Source: Cyanobacteriota bacterium (lineage in GTDB: Bacteria > Cyanobacteriota > Cyanobacteriia > PCC-6307 > Cyanobiaceae). Taken from it: a DNA stretch of 10,148 nt. The stretch covers positions 1 to 10,148 of the forward strand of contig JAPLIF010000079.1 in assembly GCA_026389255.1 (NCBI GenBank). The letters run 5' to 3'. The position numbers and the translations under genes were made by a program. Under the pieces are notes generated by a model. It did no database searches. It saw only the letters and a program-made list of their open reading frames with translations, and was not told where the DNA came from. Within the stretch, counting starts at the first letter, position 1. Each line of letters begins with the position of its first letter. Positions 1,900-10,148 of this stretch are shown piece by piece.

Positions 1900-2544
1900 A
1901 TGGTTCCTGCGATGCCCCCAGCCCTCACCGCCGCCGCAGGGGCCGCCCTGCTCGGAGCCGATGCCCGTCTGCTCAGTCAGGAATACCGCCGTGTGCTGGC
2001 CCCAACCGTCTCGCATTCCTCCGCAGCGCCGCTGCGCCTGGGCTTTCGTGAGCTGCTCTACTTCCAGGTGGTCAGCGCTCTGAGTGCCGAGGGGCTGCAG
2101 CTTTCGCCTGTTCAGAAGCGTCAGGTGTTCCGTGTCCTCACCGAGAAGACTCAGCGGTTGCCTGTGGACTCACCCCCGGGTCAGGTCGCTCTGAGTGAAT
2201 GGTCCCGTGGCAACGGTCAACTGCGCAAAACCGGTGCGGTGACCTTCAGCTTCGATCTCAGCAGCGTGAGCCAGGAGCTCCGCTATCGCTATCGGCTCCT
2301 CAGGCGGCCCCATGCCCTGGTGGAGAGCAATCCGGCCATCTGCTCGGGGCAGCCTGTGTTTCGGGGCACCCGAATTCCAGTTGCCGTGGTTGTGGAGCAG
2401 CTGCGCTCCGGCGTCAGCCGCACCGACCTGGAGGCCGACTTTCCCCAGCTCAGCACGCAGGCCCTCGACTACGCCCAGATCCAGGCCCGTCTGCCGAAGC
2501 CTCCAGGCCGTCCCCGCCAACCTCTCACCCTGCAGCGCGGCTGA
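1900..2544 (+). CDS. DUF433 antitoxin with N-terminal helix-turn-helix domain
   Basis: The 214-residue protein has two parts. Residues about 15-90 contain a MerR-like stretch (RLGFRELLYFQVVSALSAEG followed by a helix-rich segment), probably DNA-binding. Residues about 140-200 are a DUF433 domain, recognised by SNPAICSGQPVFRGTRIPV, VEQLRSGVSRTDLEADFPQL and a final helix. This HTH-DUF433 arrangement matches VapB45-type antitoxins, partners of DUF5615 PIN-like toxins, and a DUF5615 gene follows at once. Such proteins usually repress their own operon and neutralise the toxin. The start could be ATG 1900 or ATG 1912; no clear ribosome site separates them. The stop overlaps the open toxin frame. 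The gene appears intact, although its toxin partner does not. Confidence 0.8.
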   Translation: MVPAMPPALTAAAGAALLGADARLLSQEYRRVLAPTVSHSSAAPLRLGFRELLYFQVVSALSAEGLQLSPVQKRQVFRVLTEKTQRLPVDSPPGQVALSEWSRGNGQLRKTGAVTFSFDLSSVSQELRYRYRLLRRPHALVESNPAICSGQPVFRGTRIPVAVVVEQLRSGVSRTDLEADFPQLSTQALDYAQIQARLPKPPGRPRQPLTLQRG

Positions 2545-2555
2545 AGACCGATCCC

Positions 2556-2861
2556 TTGAGGCTGTTGATCGACGAAAACCTCAGCCCTCGTCTCGCCCGT
2601 TGGGCCTGTGACATGGGAATTCCAGCAGAGGCTGCCGTGCATGTCGGTCTTGCTGGCGCTGCGGATGAGGATGTCTTCGCCCATGCAGAAGCTGGTTTGA
2701 ATGCGGAAGAACAATGGCTCAGGGTCCAGTCAGCCATCCAGCTGATCAACCAGAGTTGTGGCCCTGACATGGTTAATCGGGTGCTTGAGGTTCAATCCGA
2801 CGTTGTTGTCCGATGGCATCAGATTCCCGCCAGATCATCTCAACAACCCTATATCGAATGA
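2556..2861 (+). pseudogene. DUF5615 PIN-like toxin with apparent internal deletion
   Basis: The N-terminus LRLLIDENLSPRLARWACD is the DUF5615 (Mut7-C/PIN-like) signature, with the first acidic active-site residues, followed by HVGLAGAADEDVFAHA. The C-terminus EAGLNAEEQWLRVQ and DMVNRVLEVQSDVVVRWHQI resembles the end of longer family members. Between HA and EAG (near 2686) the family normally has about 30-35 residues holding a second strand and another acidic residue (V-V-T-x-N/K-x-D-F type). They are absent here, and the frame is kept. The product would be 101 residues and probably inactive as a nuclease. No ATG fits; TTG 2556 or CTG 2541 are possible starts, 11 bases after or overlapping the antitoxin stop. 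The pair would be one operon. The deletion is inferred from memory of the family, not from an alignment. Confidence 0.6.
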
Positions 2862-3018
2862 ACCAGCTCCACCACCGCGTTCCATTCCGGCTGGTGCAAC
2901 GCCAACCCATCGGCCCCATGCCGCCGCGGGATCACCAGGCTGGGCCCAGGCGTCACCGGATCGGCATCGGCGATGCACACAGCTTCGAAAGCGCTCTCCA
3001 GCAGCACCCAGCCGCTGG
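2849..3018 (-). pseudogene. HIT-domain fragment (probable third piece of the HNH-HIT gene)
   Basis: On the minus strand the frame reads WVLLESAFEAVCIADADP, then VTPGPSLVIPRRHGADGLAL and HQPEWNAVVEL, ending in a stop at 2849-2851. This is the first half of a HIT domain (usual form LLEN..A..I.DA.PVTPGH.LVIPRRHV). The catalytic HxHxH half is absent. The normal N-terminal CxxC/FC start is also missing: transposase-like sequence takes over near 3018. The frame remains open to 3088 only by chance. HIT proteins are nucleotide hydrolases or transferases. Its CIADA coding stretch shares 15 identical bases (2963-2977) with the end of copy A (134-148), which ties the two pieces to one ancestral gene. 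Confidence 0.65.
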
Positions 3019-3020
3019 AT

Positions 3021-3859
3021 GGGGCCCGCAGTGGCTGCAACGCCTGGCGGCAATGGCAGGAGGCGCCGGGGGAGCGGGCGGCGAACAACGCTGTGATCTC
3101 CGCTGAGATCGAGGCGGTGTTTGAGGAGCACCGGGGCTTCTACGGCTCCCCCCGTATCCATCAGGAACTGCGTGCAGCCGGCTGCCATGTCGGGCTGCAT
3201 CGCGTCGCTCGGTTGATGCGCCTCAACGCCCTGAGGGCCAAGACCCGCAGGGCGTTCCGGCCCTGCACCAAAGCCACCAGCAGGACCTGCGGGGTGGTGG
3301 AGAATCTGCTGCAACAGGACTTCCAGCCCCCAGCTCCGAACCTCTATTGGGCGGGTGACATCACCTACATCCGCACCAGCGCTGGTTGGCGGTATCTAGC
3401 GGTCTGGATTGATCTGTACAGCCGCCGTGTTGTTGGCTGGAAGCTGGCTCACCGCATGGATACAGACCTGGTAATGGAAGCCCTCAACAGAGCTCTGGGC
3501 CACCGCCGGGTGGAACCGGAGCAACTGATCATCCACACGGATCAGGGCAGTCAGTATCGGGCCTCCGACTACCGCAAGCTGCTCAAGAAGCATGAGATCA
3601 GCTGCAGCATGTCTGCCAAGGGCTGCTGCTGGGACAACGCAGTTGTGGAGAGCTTTTTTCCACCCTCAAATTTGAACTGGACCTCGATGACGATGCTGAA
3701 ACCCTGTTCAATCCGGCTCAGATCCAGAGGTCATTGGCCTTCTGGATCGAGGGCTACTACAACCGCGAACGCCGCCATTCAACGATCGGTTTCCTCAGTC
3801 CAATCAATTACGAGCAATGCCTCGCGGCGACCCCTACAATCGATTTTGTGAAGCCCTGA
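3021..3859 (+). pseudogene. IS3-family transposase orfB, truncated and frameshifted
   Basis: This is the integrase-like DDE transposase. It opens with the end of the N-terminal region (GCNAWRQWQEAPGERAA), then the YGSPRIHQELR helix region, then the rve core: first Asp in WAGDITYIRT (codon 3357), second in HTDQGSQY (3540) and Glu in WDNAVVESFF (3648). The spacing, 60 and 35 residues, is classic DD35E. A T6 run at 3654-3659 then puts the frame off by one. The proper C-terminus continues in the -1 frame as STLKFELD, then GYYNRERRHSTIGFLSPINY, and ends at TGA 3857-3859. One missing T would explain this; a sequencing error or transcriptional slippage on the T run are alternatives. The N-terminal about 20-30 residues and orfA are lost. 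Confidence 0.85.
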
Positions 3860-4240
3860 GACCTGTTCACGAAATCGGGGGAACTCCACTGCTGCTCCGG
3901 AAATGCCAAGGGTGGCTTCATAGGCAAGGGCCAATTCATTCATCACTCCGTAGTCGGTCAGGTTGAGGCAGTTACCCGGGTAGGCAAAAGCGCCGATCAC
4001 CGATGGGGAGGATCTGCGGAGATTGGCCCAAGACAAAGCCCGCTCTGGGCTGTCGACCCAGAAATAGATGCCGTTGCCGAGCCAGTCGTAATCATTTTCG
4101 CTGGGCTGAAGTGTTGCCTCTCCACTCAAAACGGATTCAGCAACATCCTTGTCGCAGCCATGAAACAGCACCAAGGGGCCCAGGCTGTTCTTAGGCCGAC
4201 CGGGCATCCTGGCTGCGGTACGGAGGGGTGAGCTGGCCAT
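3779..4240 (-). pseudogene. ADP-ribosyltransferase-like protein, C-terminus cut by the IS element
   Basis: About 117 native residues are followed by about 36 residues read from the IS end. The native part has LVLFHGCDKDVAESVL near residue 23, then ENDYDWLGNGIYFWVDSPERALSWA, and later SVIGAFAYPGNCLNLTDYG. An FHG strand followed by G-x-GIYF is the arrangement seen in PARP/ART-like folds (His of the first motif, Tyr of the second). A catalytic Glu would lie further on, in the part lost. I recognise the family as a widespread uncharacterised one of about 200 residues; the enzymatic link is inference. From about 3888 downwards the frame is transposon DNA, so this is a fusion frame and not a natural end. 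Starts at 4240 or 4207 (MPGRPKN) are both possible. The cellular target is unknown; a toxin or phage-defence role would fit the neighbourhood. Confidence 0.6.
3862..3888. repeat. Putative right terminal repeat of the IS3-like element
   Basis: These bases lie just after the transposase stop and end with CCA where the neighbouring gene's coding similarity begins. The boundary is inferred from the protein on the minus strand changing character after GISGAAV. No left copy exists in the window for comparison. Confidence 0.4.
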
Positions 4241-4307
4241 CAGCGTCGATCAGGCCAGCATCCATCAGGAATCATCACTGCGCGGGCGCTGGCCCGTTGC
4301 CTGCGAA

Positions 4308-4505
4308 TCAGTCCTCGGGGTCCGGGCTGAGGGGTGGCAGCCGCCGCTCCACCTGCAGGAACACCAACCAGGCCAGACCGGCGCTGATGCCGCCGGTCCA
4401 GTCGTTGCGCAGCAGCTCCACGATCGACACCGTGCTGGCGCCGATGCGCAGGCCGCGCAGCAGGAAGCGGCCCAGCTTCTCCAGCTTCTCGCGGTTCACC
4501 GTCAT
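4308..4505 (-). CDS. Small hypothetical protein with one hydrophobic segment
   Basis: This is a 65-residue protein. It starts basic and helical (MTVNREKLEKLGRFLLRGLR), continues IGASTVSIVELLRNDWTGG and then a hydrophobic stretch (ISAGLAWLVFLQV) that could be one membrane helix, and ends in a proline/acid tail. The amino-acid pattern looks like a real conserved small protein of picocyanobacteria, but I cannot name a family. Its ATG overlaps the stop of the ORF above by one base (TGATG), which permits translational coupling. It lies upstream of and divergent from pntA. Function unknown. Confidence 0.55.
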   Translation of the reverse strand: MTVNREKLEKLGRFLLRGLRIGASTVSIVELLRNDWTGGISAGLAWLVFLQVERRLPPLSPDPED

Positions 4506-4708
4506 CAGCTGGGGCCATTGCAGAGGGGCTTCAGGTTGGCGGAAGGGCGGCGGGGGGTGATGGGCTCAGGGGTGGCCCCGTCGTCGATGAAGCCTTGGGC
4601 CTCAGGATCAGCCGCGTTGGCGGCGGCGAATGGAGAAGGGAGCTTCCGGCACCTGAATGGCTTGATCAGCTGCCCCCCCAAGCCTCCCCCCGGTGCGCGA
4701 CTCCGCAC
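4505..4708 (-). CDS. Small uncharacterised ORF upstream of the previous one
   Basis: The frame has 67 codons, rich in Pro, Ala and Arg, with the readable middle FAAANAADPEAQGFIDDGAT and no recognised domain or membrane segment. The main argument for it is the TGATG overlap with the next minus-strand gene and its position just upstream. GC-rich DNA produces such frames by chance, so it may not be expressed; it could instead be the leader region of the 4505 gene. Confidence 0.25.
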   Translation of the reverse strand: MRSRAPGGGLGGQLIKPFRCRKLPSPFAAANAADPEAQGFIDDGATPEPITPRRPSANLKPLCNGPS

Positions 4709-4725
4709 ATAGGTCGCGGTTTTGC

Positions 4726-4754
4726 TTGTTAGGGGTGCCCTCTTCCCTACTAAT
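4726..4754 (+). promoter_or_regulatory. Possible promoter of the pnt operon
   Basis: TTGTTA (4726-4731) and ACTAAT (4749-4754) are separated by 17 bases, each matching four of six sigma-70 consensus positions. They sit about 30 bases before the chosen pntA start. The pair stands out because this short stretch is A/T-richer than its GC-rich surroundings. It is a weak match by eye only. Confidence 0.3.
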
Positions 4755-4783
4755 GGACTCGGCCTGTGTCAGGTGGATCCTTG

Positions 4784-5932
4784 GTGAGATTTCTGGTGCC
4801 GCGGGAGCACTCCCCCGGCGAAAAGCGGGTGGCCGCCACGCCCGAGACCGTGCGGCGGCTGCTGGGCAAGGGGGTGACCGTGAAGGTGCAGCAGGGGGCC
4901 GGCGCCGCTGCAGGATTCCGGGATGATGATTTTTTGGCCGTCGGCGCCGAATTGGGCCCGGAGGAGGGCCTGCCCTGGGAGGAGGCCGACGGGGTGCTGT
5001 GCGTGCAGGCGCCACCGGCCGCAAGCCTGCAGCGCCTGCGGCCGGGCGCCCTGCTGGTGGGCCTGCTTTCGCCCTATGGCGCCACCGACCTGGCCGAGAC
5101 CCTCAACGGCCGCGAGGCCTCGGCCATCGCCCTGGAGCTGCTGCCCCGCATCAGCCGCGCCCAGAGCATGGATGTGCTCTCCTCCCAGGCCAACATCGCC
5201 GGCTATAAGGCGGTGGTGCTGGCCGCCGCCGCCCTCGATCGCTATGTGCCGATGCTGATGACGGCCGCCGGCACCATCCAGCCCTCGCGGGTGCTGGTGC
5301 TGGGGGCCGGTGTGGCCGGCCTGCAGGCCATCGCCACCGCCAAGCGCCTCGGCGGTGTGGTCTACGTGTCCGATGTGCGTGCCGCCGCCAAAGAACAGGT
5401 GGAATCCCTGGGGGGTCGCTTCATCGATCCGCCCGAACTGGAGGACAAGCCCGCCGAGGAGGGCGGCTATGCCAAGGCCGCCAGCGAGGCCTTCCTGGCG
5501 GCCCAACGCCAGCAGCTGGCCGACCAGCTCGCCCTCGCCGACATGGTGATCTGCACCGCCCTGGTGCCGGGCCGGACGGCGCCCCGACTGATCAGCGAAG
5601 AGATGCTCGATGGCATGCGGCCCGGCGCCGTGGTCGTCGATCTGGCCGTCGCCCAGGGCGGCAACTGCTTTGGCACCGTCGCCGGCCAGACGGTCGAGCG
5701 CCGCGGCGTGCAACTGATTGGTGCTGATGCCCTGCCCTCCAGCGTCCCCAACCACGCCAGCGCCCTCTACGCCCGCAACGTCGCCGCCCTGATCGAGCAC
5801 CTACTGGTCGAGGAGGGCCTGCGGCTCGATCCCGAGGATCCGATCCTGGCGGGCTGCCTGCTCACCCACGGCGGCACCTGCCGTCGTGAGGATGTCGTCT
5901 ATCCCAACGGTTCCCCCAACGGAGGTTCGTGA
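4784..5932 (+). CDS. pntA: NAD(P) transhydrogenase subunit alpha, part 1 (NAD-binding domain)
   Basis: This is the peripheral NAD(H)-binding domain I of proton-translocating transhydrogenase, the enzyme that uses the proton gradient to pass hydride from NADH to NADP+. The N-terminal AlaDH/PNT domain starts RFLVPREHSPGEKRVAATPE. The family signature RISRAQSMDVLSSQANIAGY lies near residue 120. The Rossmann motif VLVLGAGVAGLQAIATAKRLG near residue 172 is followed by YVSDVR, whose Asp binds NAD ribose. The product has 382 residues and lacks the membrane part, as expected for the split alpha subunit of cyanobacteria. I chose GTG 4784 because AGGTGG (4771-4776) lies seven bases before it; TTG 4781 or GTG 4766 are alternatives. 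The stop overlaps the next start by one base. Codon use is GC-rich and regular. It appears intact. Confidence 0.95.
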   Translation: MRFLVPREHSPGEKRVAATPETVRRLLGKGVTVKVQQGAGAAAGFRDDDFLAVGAELGPEEGLPWEEADGVLCVQAPPAASLQRLRPGALLVGLLSPYGATDLAETLNGREASAIALELLPRISRAQSMDVLSSQANIAGYKAVVLAAAALDRYVPMLMTAAGTIQPSRVLVLGAGVAGLQAIATAKRLGGVVYVSDVRAAAKEQVESLGGRFIDPPELEDKPAEEGGYAKAASEAFLAAQRQQLADQLALADMVICTALVPGRTAPRLISEEMLDGMRPGAVVVDLAVAQGGNCFGTVAGQTVERRGVQLIGADALPSSVPNHASALYARNVAALIEHLLVEEGLRLDPEDPILAGCLLTHGGTCRREDVVYPNGSPNGGS

Positions 5933-6222: not shown

Positions 6223-7649
6223 TGTCCACTGAATTCCTGACCGATGGCATCGACCTGGTGGCGGTGCTGCTGCTGGGCCTCGGCATCAAGGGCCTCTCCA
6301 AGGTGCGCTCCGCCCGCGGCGCCAACCAGCTGGCGGCCGTGGCCATGGGCCTGGCCGTGCTGGGCCTGTTGATCCAGATCCGTCCGGGGCCGATGGCCTG
6401 GCTGTGGATCGCCGCCGGCACCGCCGCCGGTGGCCTGGCCGGCGTCATCACCGCCCTGAAGGTGCCGATGACGGCCATGCCCGAAGTGGTGGCCCTGTTC
6501 AATGGCTGCGGCGGTCTGGCCTCCTTGCTGGTGGCCGTCGGCGTCGCCCTGTTTGATTCCGAAGGCGCCGACATGGTGGCGTTGGTGTCGATCGCCATCT
6601 CGGTGTTTGTCGGCGCCATCACCTTCAGCGGCTCGATCGTGGCCATGGCCAAGCTGCAGGGCTGGCTCAGCACCCCCGCCTGGACCCAGAGTTCGTTGCG
6701 CCACGTCGTCAACATCTCCCTGGCGGTGGCGGCCCTTGTCGGTGCCGTGCTGCTGCCCGGCGATCCTTCCGGATTGCCCCTGTGGTTGTTGGTGATCAGC
6801 TCCAGCCTGCTGGGGGTCGGCGTCACCCTGCCGATCGGCGGCGCCGACATGCCGGTGGTGATCTCGTTGCTTAATTCCTATTCGGGGGTGGCCGCCGCCG
6901 CCGCCGGCTTTGTGGTGGGCAGTCAGCTGCTGATCGTGGCGGGCGCCATGGTGGGTGCGGCCGGCCTGATCCTCACCCAGGTGATGTGCACGGCCATGAA
7001 CCGCTCGCTGCTGTCGGTGCTGTTTGGCGGCGCCCTCGGTGCCAGTGCCCTCGCCGGTGGCGGCGGATCTGGCGGCGAGACGGGCTACAGCCGCATCACC
7101 AGCTGCAGCCCCGAGGAATGCGCCATGGCCCTAGAGCAGGCCGAGCGCGTCGTGTTTGTGCCCGGCTACGGCCTGGCGGTGGCCCAGGCCCAGCACGCCC
7201 TGCGCGAGCTCGCCAAGCTGCTCGAAAACCATGGGGTTGAGGTCAGCTATGCCATCCATCCGGTGGCGGGACGCATGCCCGGCCACATGAATGTGCTGCT
7301 GGCCGAGGCCGATGTGCCCTACGAGCAGTTGCTGGAGATGGACACCATCAACCCCGAGTTCCCCCGCACCGACGTGGTGATCGTGCTCGGCGCCAATGAC
7401 GTCGTCAATCCCGACGCCAAGAGCGACCCCACCAGCCCCCTCTACGGCATGCCCGTACTGGAGGTGGATCAGGCCCGCCAGGTGTTCGTGGTCAAGCGCA
7501 GCCTCGGCGCCGGCTACTCCGGCATCTCCAATGCCCTCTTCGAACGCCCCCAAACCGCCATGGTCTTCGGCGACGCCAAGGCGGTGCTCACCGGCCTGCT
7601 CTCGGAACTGCGCAGCATGGGCGTCGGCAAGGTGAAGGTGGGGGTCTGA
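6222..7649 (+). CDS. pntB: NAD(P) transhydrogenase subunit beta
   Basis: This 475-residue subunit carries the rest of membrane domain II and the NADP(H)-binding domain III. Residues 1 to about 280 hold a series of hydrophobic helices, with conserved sequence such as KVPMTAMPEVVALFNGCGG and GADMPVVISLLNSYSGVAAA. Domain III follows: the NADP fingerprint VPGYGLAVAQAQHALREL near residue 312, HPVAGRMPGHMNVLLAEA, VIVLGANDVVNP, GMPVLEV and KRSLGAGYSGISNALF. All key motifs are present. The start is ATG 6222, overlapping the previous stop (TGATG), with GGAGA at 6211-6215. It is the last gene of the operon; a convergent toxin gene ends 28 bases further on. A worn second copy of its 3' end lies at about 8494-8582. 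Confidence 0.97.
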   Translation: MSTEFLTDGIDLVAVLLLGLGIKGLSKVRSARGANQLAAVAMGLAVLGLLIQIRPGPMAWLWIAAGTAAGGLAGVITALKVPMTAMPEVVALFNGCGGLASLLVAVGVALFDSEGADMVALVSIAISVFVGAITFSGSIVAMAKLQGWLSTPAWTQSSLRHVVNISLAVAALVGAVLLPGDPSGLPLWLLVISSSLLGVGVTLPIGGADMPVVISLLNSYSGVAAAAAGFVVGSQLLIVAGAMVGAAGLILTQVMCTAMNRSLLSVLFGGALGASALAGGGGSGGETGYSRITSCSPEECAMALEQAERVVFVPGYGLAVAQAQHALRELAKLLENHGVEVSYAIHPVAGRMPGHMNVLLAEADVPYEQLLEMDTINPEFPRTDVVIVLGANDVVNPDAKSDPTSPLYGMPVLEVDQARQVFVVKRSLGAGYSGISNALFERPQTAMVFGDAKAVLTGLLSELRSMGVGKVKVGV

Positions 7650-7669
7650 GGGGGGGCAGCGCCCCAGAC
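7644..7669 (+). terminator. Possible hairpin between pntB and the convergent toxin gene
   Basis: GTCT (7644-7647) and GGGGC (7653-7657) can pair with GCCCC (7661-7665) and AGAC (7666-7669), leaving a five-base bulge and a three-base loop. It overlaps the pntB stop codon. There is no T run after it, so it is at best a weak or bidirectional terminator. Confidence 0.25.
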
Positions 7670-7677
7670 GCCAGCTC

Positions 7678-8103
7678 TTATGGTGTCAATCCAGTGGCGA
7701 ACCGCTGCAAGCGCTGGCCTTCGGCTTGGGCCTCGGCCAGCAACTGGTTCCAGTCGTCCGCAGGGTGGCCGCCCTCCAGTATTTTGCGGAACACCCGATA
7801 GGCATCGTCGCTGTTGCCGTAGGCGCGCTTGCAGTCCTCGATATTGACCCAGGCGAACACGATCAGCTGGCTCGGCGCGTGGTAGCGGAAGAAGAGTCGG
7901 TACTGCTGGAAGAACTTCGCCCGCAACCAGTGCTTGTGATCGTCGCCCAACGTGGCGCCTTGGCGGTACTCCGGACGGGTCGGGTCTTTCTGCCTGAAGG
8001 CCTCGACTTGTTGCGCCAACGCCTCAATCTGGGCGAGGAAGAGCGGTTGGGCGAAAACCGACCAGCCGTGAACGACCAGGGATGGGGCCCGGGCCGCACT
8101 CAT
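7678..8103 (-). CDS. yhaV: YhaV-family toxin of a type II toxin-antitoxin pair
   Basis: YhaV is a ribosome-dependent or free mRNA-cleaving RNase with a RelE-like fold. This 141-residue protein carries the family features in order: VHGWSVFAQPLFLAQIEAL at the start, a middle segment with RQGATLGDDHKHWLRAKF, then FQQYRLFFRYHAPSQLIVFA WVN as two consecutive strands, followed by AYGNSDDAYRVFRKILEGGHP and a DW motif, close to E. coli YhaV throughout. The segment before HKHWLRAKF is somewhat shorter than in E. coli. The ATG at 8103 overlaps the antitoxin stop as ATGA, so the two are translated together. It converges on pntB. It looks intact. The antitoxin-toxin complex normally represses its own promoter. 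Confidence 0.92.
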   Translation of the reverse strand: MSAARAPSLVVHGWSVFAQPLFLAQIEALAQQVEAFRQKDPTRPEYRQGATLGDDHKHWLRAKFFQQYRLFFRYHAPSQLIVFAWVNIEDCKRAYGNSDDAYRVFRKILEGGHPADDWNQLLAEAQAEGQRLQRFATGLTP

Positions 8104-8438
8104 GCATCGTCCGCCGATAGGGCCGCATCAAGATCGACCTCGATGCCACCGACCAGCGATTGCAGCCGGTCGACCAAGCCCGCATCCACCGCCTGCAGAC
8201 GCTCGGGATGGCTGGCCATGTCACGAGCCAGGAAGCCCAGGAACTGGCCGAGCACTGGGTCGTCAGCTTCGAGGCCTTCGGCGCTTGTGGAGCGCGTCAG
8301 CACGACTTCGCCACTGGGGCGGATGCTGTAGCGGATCTTGTCGCGCTTGCCGAGCCGCAGGGCGCGCCGCACGGTTTCCGGCACGGTCGTCTGGTAGCGG
8401 TCGGTCAAGGTGGATTCGACGTCGAGGCTGGCAGGCAT
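8100..8438 (-). CDS. prlF: PrlF-family antitoxin (AbrB/MazE-like)
   Basis: PrlF (SohA) neutralises YhaV and represses the operon through a swapped-hairpin AbrB/MazE-like DNA-binding domain. That domain is clear at the N-terminus: DVESTLTDRYQTTVPETVRR then LRLGKRDKIRYSIRPSGEVVL. A helical C-terminal part follows (DPVLGQFLGFLARDMASHPE, LVDRLQSLVGG), which should bind the toxin. I chose ATG 8438 (112 residues); an upstream ATG at 8489 would add 17 residues of His/Pro-rich sequence read from a homopolymer tract and is unlikely. GAAG at 8445-8448 on the minus strand is a weak ribosome site. The stop overlaps the yhaV start. Confidence 0.9.
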   Translation of the reverse strand: MPASLDVESTLTDRYQTTVPETVRRALRLGKRDKIRYSIRPSGEVVLTRSTSAEGLEADDPVLGQFLGFLARDMASHPERLQAVDAGLVDRLQSLVGGIEVDLDAALSADDA

Positions 8439-8452
8439 GGGACGCTTCGGCC

Positions 8453-8468
8453 AAAAAAAAGGGGGGGG
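8453..8468. repeat. A8-G8 homopolymer junction ahead of prlF
   Basis: Eight A are followed directly by eight G (C8-T8 on the coding strand of prlF), 15-30 bases before the antitoxin start. Such runs slip easily in replication and in sequencing. Confidence 0.85.
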
Positions 8469-8493
8469 TGGATGGTAATGCAGGTGCATTGCC

Positions 8494-8582
8494 GGGCTCC
8501 TCGGCGCCGGCTACGGCGGCATCGCCAAGGCCTTGTTCGAATTGCCCCTAATAGCCATGGTCTTAGGAGATGCCAAGGGGCG
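8494..8582 (+). pseudogene. Relic of a second pntB 3' end
   Basis: The plus strand reads LLGAGYGGIAKALFELPLIA then MVLGDAK, which aligns with the pntB end SLGAGYSGISNALFERPQTA, MVFGDAK. DNA identity to 7501-7580 is obvious, with scattered changes both silent and non-silent, and similarity stops just after GDAK. There is no start, and the true pntB C-terminus is not reached. It sits on the far side of prlF-yhaV, in the same orientation as pntB. Confidence 0.8.
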
Positions 8583-8703
8583 CTCAAGGGCTCAGGAGAC
8601 AATCAGGGATAGGTCTTGGGAGAGGTTTTGCTTATATTGACTTAGCCTCAAAAAGACGATCCGCAGCGCCCCACGCTCTAGAGTTAAGAAATTAGAAGTG
8701 CGT

Positions 8704-8862
8704 ATGGACTCTGGATTCGTCAGGCGAGACCCTGGAATCATGAGCGGAGCGCTGTGCTTTTCGGGCACGCGAGTCCCTGTGAAGAACTTGTTCGACTATT
8801 TGGAAGGTGTCTCTTCGCTAGAGGTATTCCTTGATGACTTTCCCACTGTTTCACGTGAATGA
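8704..8862 (+). pseudogene. DUF433 antitoxin relic, truncated
   Basis: A 52-codon frame reads FVRRDPGIMSGALCFSGTRV, then PVKNLFDYLEGVSSLEVFL and DDFPTVSRE, stopping at TGA 8860-8862. This is nearly the whole core of the short DUF433 antitoxin family (usual form DP.I..G.P.F.GTRVPVK.L..YLEGG.SLDEFL.DFP.VSREQ). The last helix that normally follows SREQ is missing; the next codons in frame (VSGFVLDAP) may be its worn remains. It could still be made as a short protein. No DUF5615 toxin is readable downstream. It is unrelated at DNA level to the DUF433 gene at 1900. Confidence 0.7.
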
Positions 8863-9165
8863 GTTTCGGGCTTCGTTCTGGACGCACCTGCCGAAATAAC
8901 TTTATGACTTCAATGACATTAGAAATTACGATGATTTACACACGTATTTGCTGAACTGCAGCCCCTGGGCACGACCGACCCTCCTGGCGATTTGTATCAT
9001 TGCGAACCCTTATAGGCGGATCCGCCCATCAAACCCGGAATACTTCCGACTTGTGGGAATGACTTGTCATCGCAAGCGATCTCACGGAGGCCTACCGCTT
9101 GCCATCCGCTTTTAGGCGGCAGAAACGCCGGTGAATGGGATAATATACGGATGCGTCTAAGAACT
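8863..9165. other. Gene-free, A/T-richer stretch with short palindromes
   Basis: I see no convincing gene here. The stretch contains a perfect 12-base palindrome GGCGGATCCGCC (9015-9026), preceded by TTATA, and a related TTTTAGGCGGCAGAAACGCC further on (9112-9131), which can also form a small hairpin. GATAATAT at 9139-9146 resembles a -10 box and could serve the methyltransferase downstream. Short frames in it have no recognisable content. Confidence 0.5.
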
Positions 9166-9172
9166 GTTAGAC
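9155..9172. repeat. Small inverted repeat with GTTAGAC, possible cassette 5' boundary
   Basis: GTCTAA (9155-9160) and TTAGAC (9167-9172) form a perfect six-base inverted repeat around GAACTG. The right half with its preceding G is GTTAGAC (9166-9172), an exact GTTRRRY integron core, 16 bases before the methyltransferase ATG. It is the exact complement of the GTCTAAC box at 9997-10003. Confidence 0.45.
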
Positions 9173-9187
9173 TTAGCAAAAACCGCT

Positions 9188-10002
9188 ATGCGCCATCCAT
9201 CCCCACAAGCCGACTGGCCCGAGTCCTGGAAGAACTCTTACATGTTCGACTTGGAGGAAGTCTTTGATCAAATTGCCAACCGAGGTTATGCTTATGCCTA
9301 TCAAGTGCGCAGAAGCAAAACGCTTGATCTCTTATCTTAACTAGGGGTCTCCCGGCGCCGGCAAGGGTGCTCGACATTGCAGCAGCTCAAGGAAACTTCA
9401 CGTTATCACTAGCTGAAATTGGTTATCAGGTTACCTGGAATGACTTGCGCGATGACCTTGCAGGATACGTAAAGCTAAAGCACACGTTTGGAGACGTAGC
9501 TTACGCCCCCGGCAACGCATTCGACTTAGACTTTCCAGACTTGTTTGATGGAGTCCTCATAACAGAGGTAATTGAGCATGTCGCACACCCAGACAGATTC
9601 CTTGAGGCAACCGCGAGGCTTGTAAAACCAGGAGGATGTATTGTAATGACCACGCCGAATGGAGCGTACTTTCGGAACACCCTGCCTAAATTCTCAGATT
9701 GCCCTGACCCTTCCATTTTCGAATCGGGGCAGTTTAAGCCCGACGCTGATGGGCATATATTCCTTTTATATCCTGAGGAAATTCATCGATTCGCCTTGGC
9801 TTCTGGTCTGGTTGTCGAAGAGATCCAGTTTTTTACTAATCTGCTCACTAACGGCCACTTGAAGACTTCTTACTTACTTCCAATTCTTCCTCGCCGGATA
9901 GTTCACGCGATAGAGTCAGGAAGCCAGCTTTTACCCAGCAAAGTCGCTGAACGAATATTGCTTCAAGTCGGAGTGCGGTTCCGCAGGCCGCTTGATGTCT
10001 AA
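9188..10002 (+). pseudogene. Class I SAM-dependent methyltransferase, broken by a one-base frameshift
   Basis: The first part, ATG 9188 to TAA 9338-9340, reads MRHPSPQADWPESWKNSYMF, DLEEVFDQIANRGYAYAYQV and RRSKTLDLLS. The rest continues in the next frame from about 9343: GLPAPARVLDIAAAQGNFTL (motif I, SAM-binding; usually E/D-x-G-x-G, here D-I-A-A-A-Q-G-N-F), VTWNDLRDDL (acidic end of strand 2), FDGVLITEVIEHVAHPDRFL (post-motif I/II) and LVKPGGCIVMTTPNGAYF (motif III). One missing T near 9337 would restore a protein of about 271 residues (…LLSLTRGLPAPARVLD…). A sequencing error would do the same. The substrate is unknown; family relatives are often linked to surface glycan or lipid modification. 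The DNA is clearly A/T-richer than the pnt region. The stop TAA (10000-10002) lies within the attC-like element. There is no good ribosome site at 9188. Confidence 0.75.
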
Positions 10003-10087
10003 CAACACCATGCACCTGAGCCGCCGCCAAAGACTCCGGTGTATCTCCCAACGCCTCCATGCGGCCAGGTGATGGTGAGCGTTAGCT
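9997..10087 (+). other. attC-like integron recombination site
   Basis: GTCTAAC (9997-10003) fits R'' (RYYYAAC), and GTTAGCT (10081-10087) fits R' (GTTRRRY) with one mismatch. Between them are paired arms: CTAAC/GTTAG (5 bp), an unpaired 2x3 spacer, CACCAT/ATGGTG (10006-10011 with 10072-10077), CACCTG/CAGGTG (10013-10018 with 10066-10071) and GCCGC/GCGGC (10020-10024 with 10061-10065). Bases G10012 and A10019 are left unpaired, both on the left arm and seven apart, as are the extrahelical bases of attC sites. Total length 91 bases and loop 36 bases are in the attC range. The methyltransferase stop codon overlaps R''. No integrase gene is in the window. Confidence 0.6.
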
Positions 10088-10148
10088 GTACCGGAAGCCG
10101 AAGCCGGCTATCCTTAGTTTCAGGGTGTAGATCACGGATGCCGATAGT

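What the first reader, a model, noticed from the sequence alone, without database searches (positions are those of the whole stretch)
9166..10087. Methyltransferase gene appears to be an integron gene cassette with a structured attC site
The 91-bp element at 9997-10087 has R'' and R' boxes, 22 paired bases and two bulged bases on the same arm, and contains the gene's stop codon, all typical of attC. On the 5' side GTTAGAC (9166-9172) lies 16 bases before the ATG. If the cassette were excised between G10081 and T9167, the circle's R' would be G+TTAGAC = GTTAGAC, an exact complement of the R'' GTCTAAC. In place, the R' (GTTAGCT) pairs less well, which is expected because its last six bases belong to the next cassette or the chromosome. 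This reciprocal fit was not built into the search. Cassettes in a picocyanobacterial background beside pnt would be notable.
Basis: partly seen in the sequence, partly recalled or inferred. Interest (0 to 1): 0.75.

Follow-up and report, generated by a model that had tools for sequence, protein, structure and literature searches.

The report
Integron cassette at integrase-dead attI site
A methyltransferase gene in this small freshwater cyanobacterium is a mobile integron gene cassette, parked at a landing site whose own integrase gene has decayed, and relatives suggest that such orphan landing sites are still being refilled by an integrase encoded elsewhere in the genome.

Summary
Confirmed and extended. 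The element at 9997-10087 is an attC site: a profile built only from other genomes finds it (9994-10088, E=1.3e-18). GTTAGAC at 9166 is the true left boundary: in 13 adjacent cassette pairs the in-place R' exactly complements the next cassette's R'' in 8 and its own in 0. An intact IntI resembling V. cholerae IntI4 lies elsewhere in the genome (C302). IntI matches occur in 38 of 41 genomes of the genus. In the five genomes with a single IntI match, 5 of 28 attI-like sites lie beside it. Related platforms carry different content from exactly G|TT onward. Integrons in Cyanobacteria are in print; my searches listed nothing on dispersed intI-less attI platforms there. The cassette's gene is frameshifted by a 5-bp tandem duplication (9330-9339).

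The parts
8920..8993 (+). Fossil of the 3' end of an integron integrase gene (about the last 25 codons, with indels)
   Evidence: DNA alignment in register with the intI 3' ends of L109 (75%) and L113 (71%); shares a 2-nt insertion and a 1-nt deletion with L105. A translated search does not find it (E up to 10)
9106..9172 (+). attI site: repeat-like motifs at about 9109-9119 and 9147-9155, L box GTCTAAG 9155-9161, R box GTTAGAC 9166-9172, crossover G9166|T9167
   Evidence: Leave-one-out profile from 13 other attI sites, 9106-9169, E=3e-15; 10 of 12 aligned loci show the core G|TT there and diverge after it
9167..10081 (+). Integron gene cassette (915 bp)
   Evidence: Left edge exactly complementary to its own R''; right edge at attC R'
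9188..9340 (+). Start of the methyltransferase frame (ATG) up to an in-frame TAA (9338-9340)
   Evidence: Reads MRHPSPQADWPESWKNSY..., matching the N-terminus of 269-aa homologues P0002-P0004
9330..9339 (+). 5-bp tandem duplication TCTTA TCTTA that shifts the frame
   Evidence: Direct reading against homologues
9367..10002 (+). Rest of the SAM-dependent methyltransferase ORF (211 aa)
   Evidence: Pfam Methyltransf_11 5.7e-14, Methyltransf_23 1.8e-12; 2110 proteins at E<=0.001
9997..10087 (+). attC site: R'' GTCTAAC 9997-10003, R' GTTAGCT 10081-10087, two extrahelical bases on the R''-L'' arm
10082..10148 (+). Probable start of a second cassette, cut by the contig end
   Evidence: From G10081 on, 45-46 of 68 bases identical to cassette starts behind other sites in L216, L211 and L220; aligned with L205 too

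Best explanation
A methyltransferase gene cassette, ending in a bona fide attC, sits in first position at an attI whose own intI has decayed to a fossil. It entered by IntI-mediated recombination of the folded attC bottom strand of a cassette circle with attI, at G9166|T9167. Because the local intI was already broken in the ancestor shared with G001, whose platform at the same locus holds other content, the platform was most likely loaded in trans by an intact IntI elsewhere in the genome (C302 today). Shown by sequence: attC, attI, intI fossil, both boundaries, an intact IntI in the same assembly, different content at related sites. Inferred: the reaction itself, trans supply, timing.
For: attC: same-genome copies; leave-one-out profile E=1.3e-18; over 34 distinct attC rows the structure pairs 93.5% of cells (shuffled mean 68.7%, slid at most 38.3%) and 173 cells change on both sides (shuffled mean 67.5, 0 of 500 reach it). 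Boundaries: in 13 adjacent pairs R' matches the NEXT cassette's R'' exactly in 8 (44 of 52 variable positions) and its own R'' in 0 (24 of 52); 0 of 20000 shuffles reach 44; the four other arrays I tested and the window each have one matching first-cassette edge, at the leader end. attI: leave-one-out E=3e-15. Intact IntI: 341-residue query region, best PDB hit 2a3v IntI4 3.3e-87, followed by its own attI and two cassettes. Trans loading: window and G001 share the pnt locus (pntB 98%, prlF/yhaV beside it) and the same lesions in the fossil but differ after G|TT; G001 and G062 platforms are 97.6% identical over 844 bp up to G|TT and unrelated after it, G062 holding a gene-less cassette whose R'' GAGCAAC complements its edge; C142 and its orthologue G062:C115 (88.8% over 1460 bp), with no IntI match in the 2.3 kb held upstream of C142's site, differ from G|TT on; own-genome C142 and C253 share an identical 141 bp starting at the AG before TT, behind unrelated left flanks.
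Against: No recombination was observed, only compared. The window's own cassette could have entered before intI died. The intI fossil rests on DNA alignment; a translated search does not see it. The genome is a 376-contig draft, and the window ends 61 bases after the R' box. G001's content shows no recognised attC in its 671 bases, so its cassette status is open. G062:C34 has no full pntB in the stretch held, so it is a homologous platform, not a proven orthologue. In one search the number of pairs with two-sided change (16 of 23) is reached by 32 of 500 shuffles, and the outermost helix is paired in only 67% of cells. Five of 13 pairs do not match exactly (three in L191, one each in L136 and L118). 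R1 was trained on the window, so one search is circular for it, and the leave-one-out rows were aligned with R1.
Confidence: 0.87

Rival explanations
1. The platform loaded this cassette in cis while its own IntI still worked; intI died later and nothing has moved since.
For: An intI fossil lies in the expected place, and intI decay is common in print (PMC2426708, abstract: nearly one third pseudogenes). Nothing dates the window's own insertion.
Against: Window and G001 share indels in the fossil at the same locus, so intI was broken before they split, yet content differs from G|TT on; G001 and G062 differ there at 97.6% flank identity.
Confidence: 0.35
2. The cassette was inserted off-target into the chromosome (attG-type site), with no integron platform.
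For: No intact intI in the window; attG insertions are described in print (PMC12901181, passages).
Against: The left flank is an attI by leave-one-out profile and by alignment to intI-linked sites.
Confidence: 0.03
3. The palindrome is an ordinary intergenic repeat or terminator unrelated to integrons.
For: It is GC-rich and recurs in the genome; no Rfam match at gathering score.
Against: Recurrent copies follow intI and attI in ordered arrays with matching boundaries; covariation; extrahelical bases on one arm.
Confidence: 0.02

Closest known systems
Sedentary chromosomal integrons (e.g. Vibrio cholerae, IntI4)
   Same: IntI family (2a3v best PDB hit), attI, attC sites similar to one another within the genome, cassette stop codon at attC
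   Different: No single long array seen here: short arrays at many attI-like sites, 23 of 28 without an IntI match beside them in the five genomes that allow the count
Class 2 integrons with truncated IntI2 (PMC8876359, passages seen)
   Same: attI and cassettes kept beside an inactive integrase gene; supply in trans by another IntI is my recollection, not read here
   Different: There a premature stop in a mobile integron; here intI is mostly erased and the attI is chromosomal, one of many
CALIN / lone attC lacking integrase (IntegronFinder terms, recalled)
   Same: attC-bearing cassette without a nearby functional intI
   Different: Here the attI itself is retained and recognisable

Membership tests
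Integron gene cassette | attC with R'' and R' boxes, folding with extrahelical bases on the R''-L'' arm, central spacer and variable terminal part (as defined in PMC2727003, passages) | tested here: met
Integron gene cassette | Boundaries G|TT at both ends; the circle would restore a perfect R''/R' pair | tested here: met
   GTTAGAC at 9166 and GTCTAAC at 9997; rule checked on 13 pairs
Integron gene cassette | Usually one gene, stop at or in attC (recalled) | tested here: met
   TAA 10000-10002 inside R''; but the gene is frameshifted
Integron gene cassette | Excision or integration demonstrated | not testable with these tools
   Comparative evidence only
Complete integron | attI | tested here: met
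   leave-one-out E=3e-15
Complete integron | Intact intI next to attI | tested here: not met
   Only a fossil at 8920-8993; intact IntI elsewhere at C302
Complete integron | Cassette promoter Pc | not tested
   No promoter analysis was made

The most novel reading that the evidence does not exclude
Freshwater picocyanobacteria of this genus run a distributed ('polycentric') integron: one or a few live integrases and many orphan attI landing pads scattered over the chromosome, each holding one or a few cassettes and refilled in trans, instead of one superarray; the pads even serve as targets for an IS91-like element whose ends imitate cassette boundaries.
Probability: 0.5. Interest if true: 0.75.

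Novelty: new variant of a known kind. Interest (0 to 1): 0.62.

Why it matters
Integrons are usually pictured as one platform with its own integrase. If a single integrase services many attI pads, cassette position and expression are uncoupled from intI, decayed platforms remain useful, and cassettes can be delivered beside many different chromosomal genes. It also offers a phototrophic, non-pathogenic model group (41 genomes of the genus were searched here) for how integrons spread, decay and persist.

Tried and rejected
Rfam on the window at gathering score: no match. An attG (off-target) reading of the left flank was dropped once the leader aligned with intI-linked attI sites. DNA search with 7650-10148 in 60 genomes: no second copy of the methyltransferase cassette, one 67% match to part of the gene in another family (G038:C562), where model R1 found no attC in the fetched stretch L093.

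Results that do not fit or stay open. In one search (20 stretches), no reciprocal edge was found for an attC in L208, L209, L211, L212, L214, L217, L220, L222 and L224 (in some of these another attC of the same stretch has one), and none could be read for L213. Edges lay at an attC-like end (L219), at a site without attI motif (L206, L210), or at the right end of the IS91-like element (L205); L207 gave two candidate edges, one at its attI. So not every isolated cassette is explained by an orphan attI. G019:C36 has an attI like C142's but shares only 227 bp with it, so I do not count it as an orthologue. In G023 one of five copies of the IS91-like element (L227) lies at a site without attI motif.

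Element junctions, classed by eye: of 25 left junctions 11 attI, 1 attC R' side, 5 attC R'' side in reverse, 8 other. They come from the matches listed, which scored at most seven candidates per genome, so they are neither complete nor a random sample.

Rows dropped: L139 and L126 (duplicates of L124 and L122) and the reverse-strand echo L012:14713; that echo row is still among the 34 rows. For the leave-one-out attC profile, the seven own-genome rows and the two duplicates (36 to 27). In one search one R'' of L118 was read as CGCAAAC where read AACTAAC; it enters only the 'own R''' column and scores 1 of 4 either way. The four arrays of the attI-edge test were chosen by me after seeing their leader ends.

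Full report
What was checked. The window is contig C181 (1-10148) of a 2.1 Mb, 376-contig, 78.8%-complete draft genome. Named relatives by integrase match are Cyanobium, Synechococcus (UW140, CS-1329, SynAce01, WH 5701), Vulcanococcus limneticus and others, which fits a picocyanobacterial background.

The attC is real. R'' GTCTAAC (9997-10003) and R' GTTAGCT (10081-10087) bracket a stem with two extrahelical bases on the R''-L'' arm, the arm on which PMC2727003 (passages) defines them. Three other copies at 75-77% lie in the same genome: two follow an integrase gene about 0.9 kb apart on C302, one lies on C253. A profile from 27 attC rows of other genomes gives one match in the window, 9994-10088, E=1.3e-18. 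Over 34 distinct rows, 93.5% of cells pair (shuffled mean 68.7%, slid at most 38.3%), 173 cells change on both sides (shuffled mean 67.5) and the covariation score is 0.551 (slid at most 0.104). The count of pairs with two-sided change, 16 of 23, is less telling: 32 of 500 shuffles reach it, and the outermost helix pairs in only 67% of cells. That alignment was fitted to a model built from four of its rows, which favours the structure.

The boundary logic holds. In 13 adjacent attC pairs (L012 of the own genome; L117, L118, L136, L143, L191), the in-place R' complements the next cassette's R'' exactly in 8 and its own R'' in none: 44 against 24 of 52 variable positions, shuffled mean 25.7, 0 of 20000 shuffles reaching 44. 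At the attI end, the four other arrays tested (L012, L117, L122, L124) and the window each have exactly one matching edge in the stretch searched, at the end of the leader. In the own genome C67 also shows it: attI, then edge GTTAGAT, then an attC with R'' ATCTAAC. The bases after 10081 resemble the start of a cassette found behind other sites in L216, L205, L211 and L220 (45-46 of 68 identical to L216, L211 and L220), so the array probably continues past the contig end.

The left flank is an attI with a dead integrase. Window 8534-9170 matches G001 at 83%, and 8920-9172 matches L109 at 75% and, over a shorter stretch, L113 at 71%; both have intI directly upstream, L113 unbroken, L109 with an internal deletion. 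Window 8920-8993 aligns with the last ~25 codons of intI, with a 2-nt insertion and a 1-nt deletion shared with G001. A translated search does not detect this fossil, so it rests on the DNA alignment. In the 12 aligned loci, 10 show the core G|TT at the window's 9166/9167 and diverge after it; L112 reads GTC and L120 lacks the core. A profile from 13 other attI sites, two of them in the own genome, hits 9106-9169 at E=3e-15; its two further matches are weak and lie on the palindrome at 9010-9029. Aligned attI sites share two repeat-like motifs upstream of the core, in two lineage types (GGCGGATCC-like and GTGGTTCACGGAA-like). Direct repeats bound by IntI1 in attI1 are recalled, not read here.

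The source of recombinase. C302 encodes an intact IntI (341-residue query, 418-aa open frame; best PDB hit V. cholerae IntI4, 2a3v, 3.3e-87), followed by its own attI and two cassettes (an EcsC-family gene and another methyltransferase). The other IntI matches in this genome are split, broken or partial (C192, C253, C143, C281, C309, C132, C176).

How general. Counting G000-G036 in the tables, 27 of 37 genomes of the genus have an IntI match at E<=1e-40 and 34 of 37 an R1 attC match at E<=0.001. With a wider draw, IntI at E<=1e-5 (fragments included) is found in 38 of 41, the type-C attI model R3 in 38 of 41, the type-A/B model R2 in 19 of 41. R3 matches none of the 76 other genomes of the class that were searched. 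R2 and R3 were trained on sites from some of these genomes. Five genomes have exactly one IntI match (G004, G012, G013, G018, G032); they hold 28 R3 matches (4, 5, 10, 7, 2), of which 5, one in each, lie just downstream of the IntI match. Heavily decayed fossils such as the window's escape this search, so 'no intI' means no recognisable one. In single-contig G023, one of the 7 listed R3 matches (8 in all) is beside its single intI; ten of its eleven IntI rows belong to the five copies of the IS91-like element. Of 20 stretches fetched around attC sites, one (L211) held a full intI; seven others (L207, L214, L215, L216, L218, L221, L223) showed a reciprocal edge at an attI motif, with no IntI match at E<=0.01 in the stretch, which reaches 1.7-3.4 kb upstream of that edge. 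The rest are mixed and told under Tried and rejected.

Evidence that dead or orphan pads are refilled. At the pnt locus the window and G001 share pntB (98%), prlF/yhaV and the broken fossil, yet continue differently after G|TT. G001 and G062:C34 are 97.6% identical over 844 bp up to that point and unrelated after it; G062 holds a gene-less cassette with its own attC-like hairpin and matching edge. G062:C34 has no full pntB in the stretch held, so whether it is the same locus is open. C142 of the own genome and G062:C115 are orthologous by flank (88.8% over 1460 bp and 85% over 677 bp), with no IntI match in the C142 stretch, and differ from G|TT on; G062's first cassette edge there matches its R'' AGCTAAC. 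Within the own genome an identical 141 bp, which on C253 begins a cassette with MazE- and PemK/MazF-type genes, follows unrelated left flanks on C142 and C253. I read this as recombination in trans by an intact IntI. It is comparative, not observed, and mixture of strains in a draft genome cannot be wholly excluded.

The cassette's gene. The best full-coverage homologues are 85-87% identical and 267-269 aa long. The window reads the same N-terminus from ATG 9188, but a tandem duplication TCTTA (9330-9339) breaks the frame (TAA 9338-9340), leaving 211 codons from GTG 9367. Whether this is real or a sequencing error is open.

Print. Cyanobacteria are named as integron-bearing in PMC9668308, and a Cyanobacteria attC model is used in PMC8352920 and PMC9176274 (passages). 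PMC3108266 lists a Synechococcus sp. (passage). PMC2426708 reports nearly one third intI pseudogenes and 20% of bacteria with more than one integrase gene (abstract). Searches on cyanobacterial, picocyanobacterial or Cyanobium integrons, on attG or orphan and secondary attI and on insertion sequences with attI listed no paper whose title or abstract start treats dispersed intI-less attI platforms in these organisms. Several lists were capped (20 of 29, 10 of 33, 15 of 70 and 15 of 79 shown), and most subscription papers are not in that library.

Verdict. The finding stands and is an ordinary integron cassette in kind. What lifts it is the setting: an attI whose integrase gene is dead, one of many such pads in the genus.

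Noticed in passing
L118, L205, L225, L226, L227 (G023); L230 (G014): A 2,472-bp element coding a tyrosine recombinase plus an IS91-like transposase (Y2_Tnp, Zn_Tnp_IS91) sits exactly at the G|TT crossover of four attI sites in G023 and one in G014, and at one G023 site without attI motif; its left edge G+TTGAAC complements an R''-like GTTCAAC near its right end, as in a cassette.
   Followed up: partly
window 7503-7590 and 8500-8586: The 3' end of pntB is duplicated (81%) on the far side of a PrlF/YhaV toxin-antitoxin pair (7678-8489, minus strand), as if the module had inserted at the gene end.
   Followed up: no
window 8642-8863: Remnant that looks by eye like a DUF433-type antitoxin gene; 83% match at G019:C66. 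Not family-searched.
   Followed up: no
L012 12667, 12747, 12951, 13081 and window 9015: Leaders between intI and attI hold further palindromic GGCGGATCCGCC-like motifs; role unknown.
   Followed up: no
L014 (C192) 2079-5502: An intI gene split by about 2.6 kb of other sequence in the own genome.
   Followed up: no
L172 and L185 (Shewanella) and the right end of the IS91-like element: Similar short attC-like hairpins (GGATAAG..CTATCC) in Shewanella loci fetched by IntI and at the element's end.
   Followed up: no
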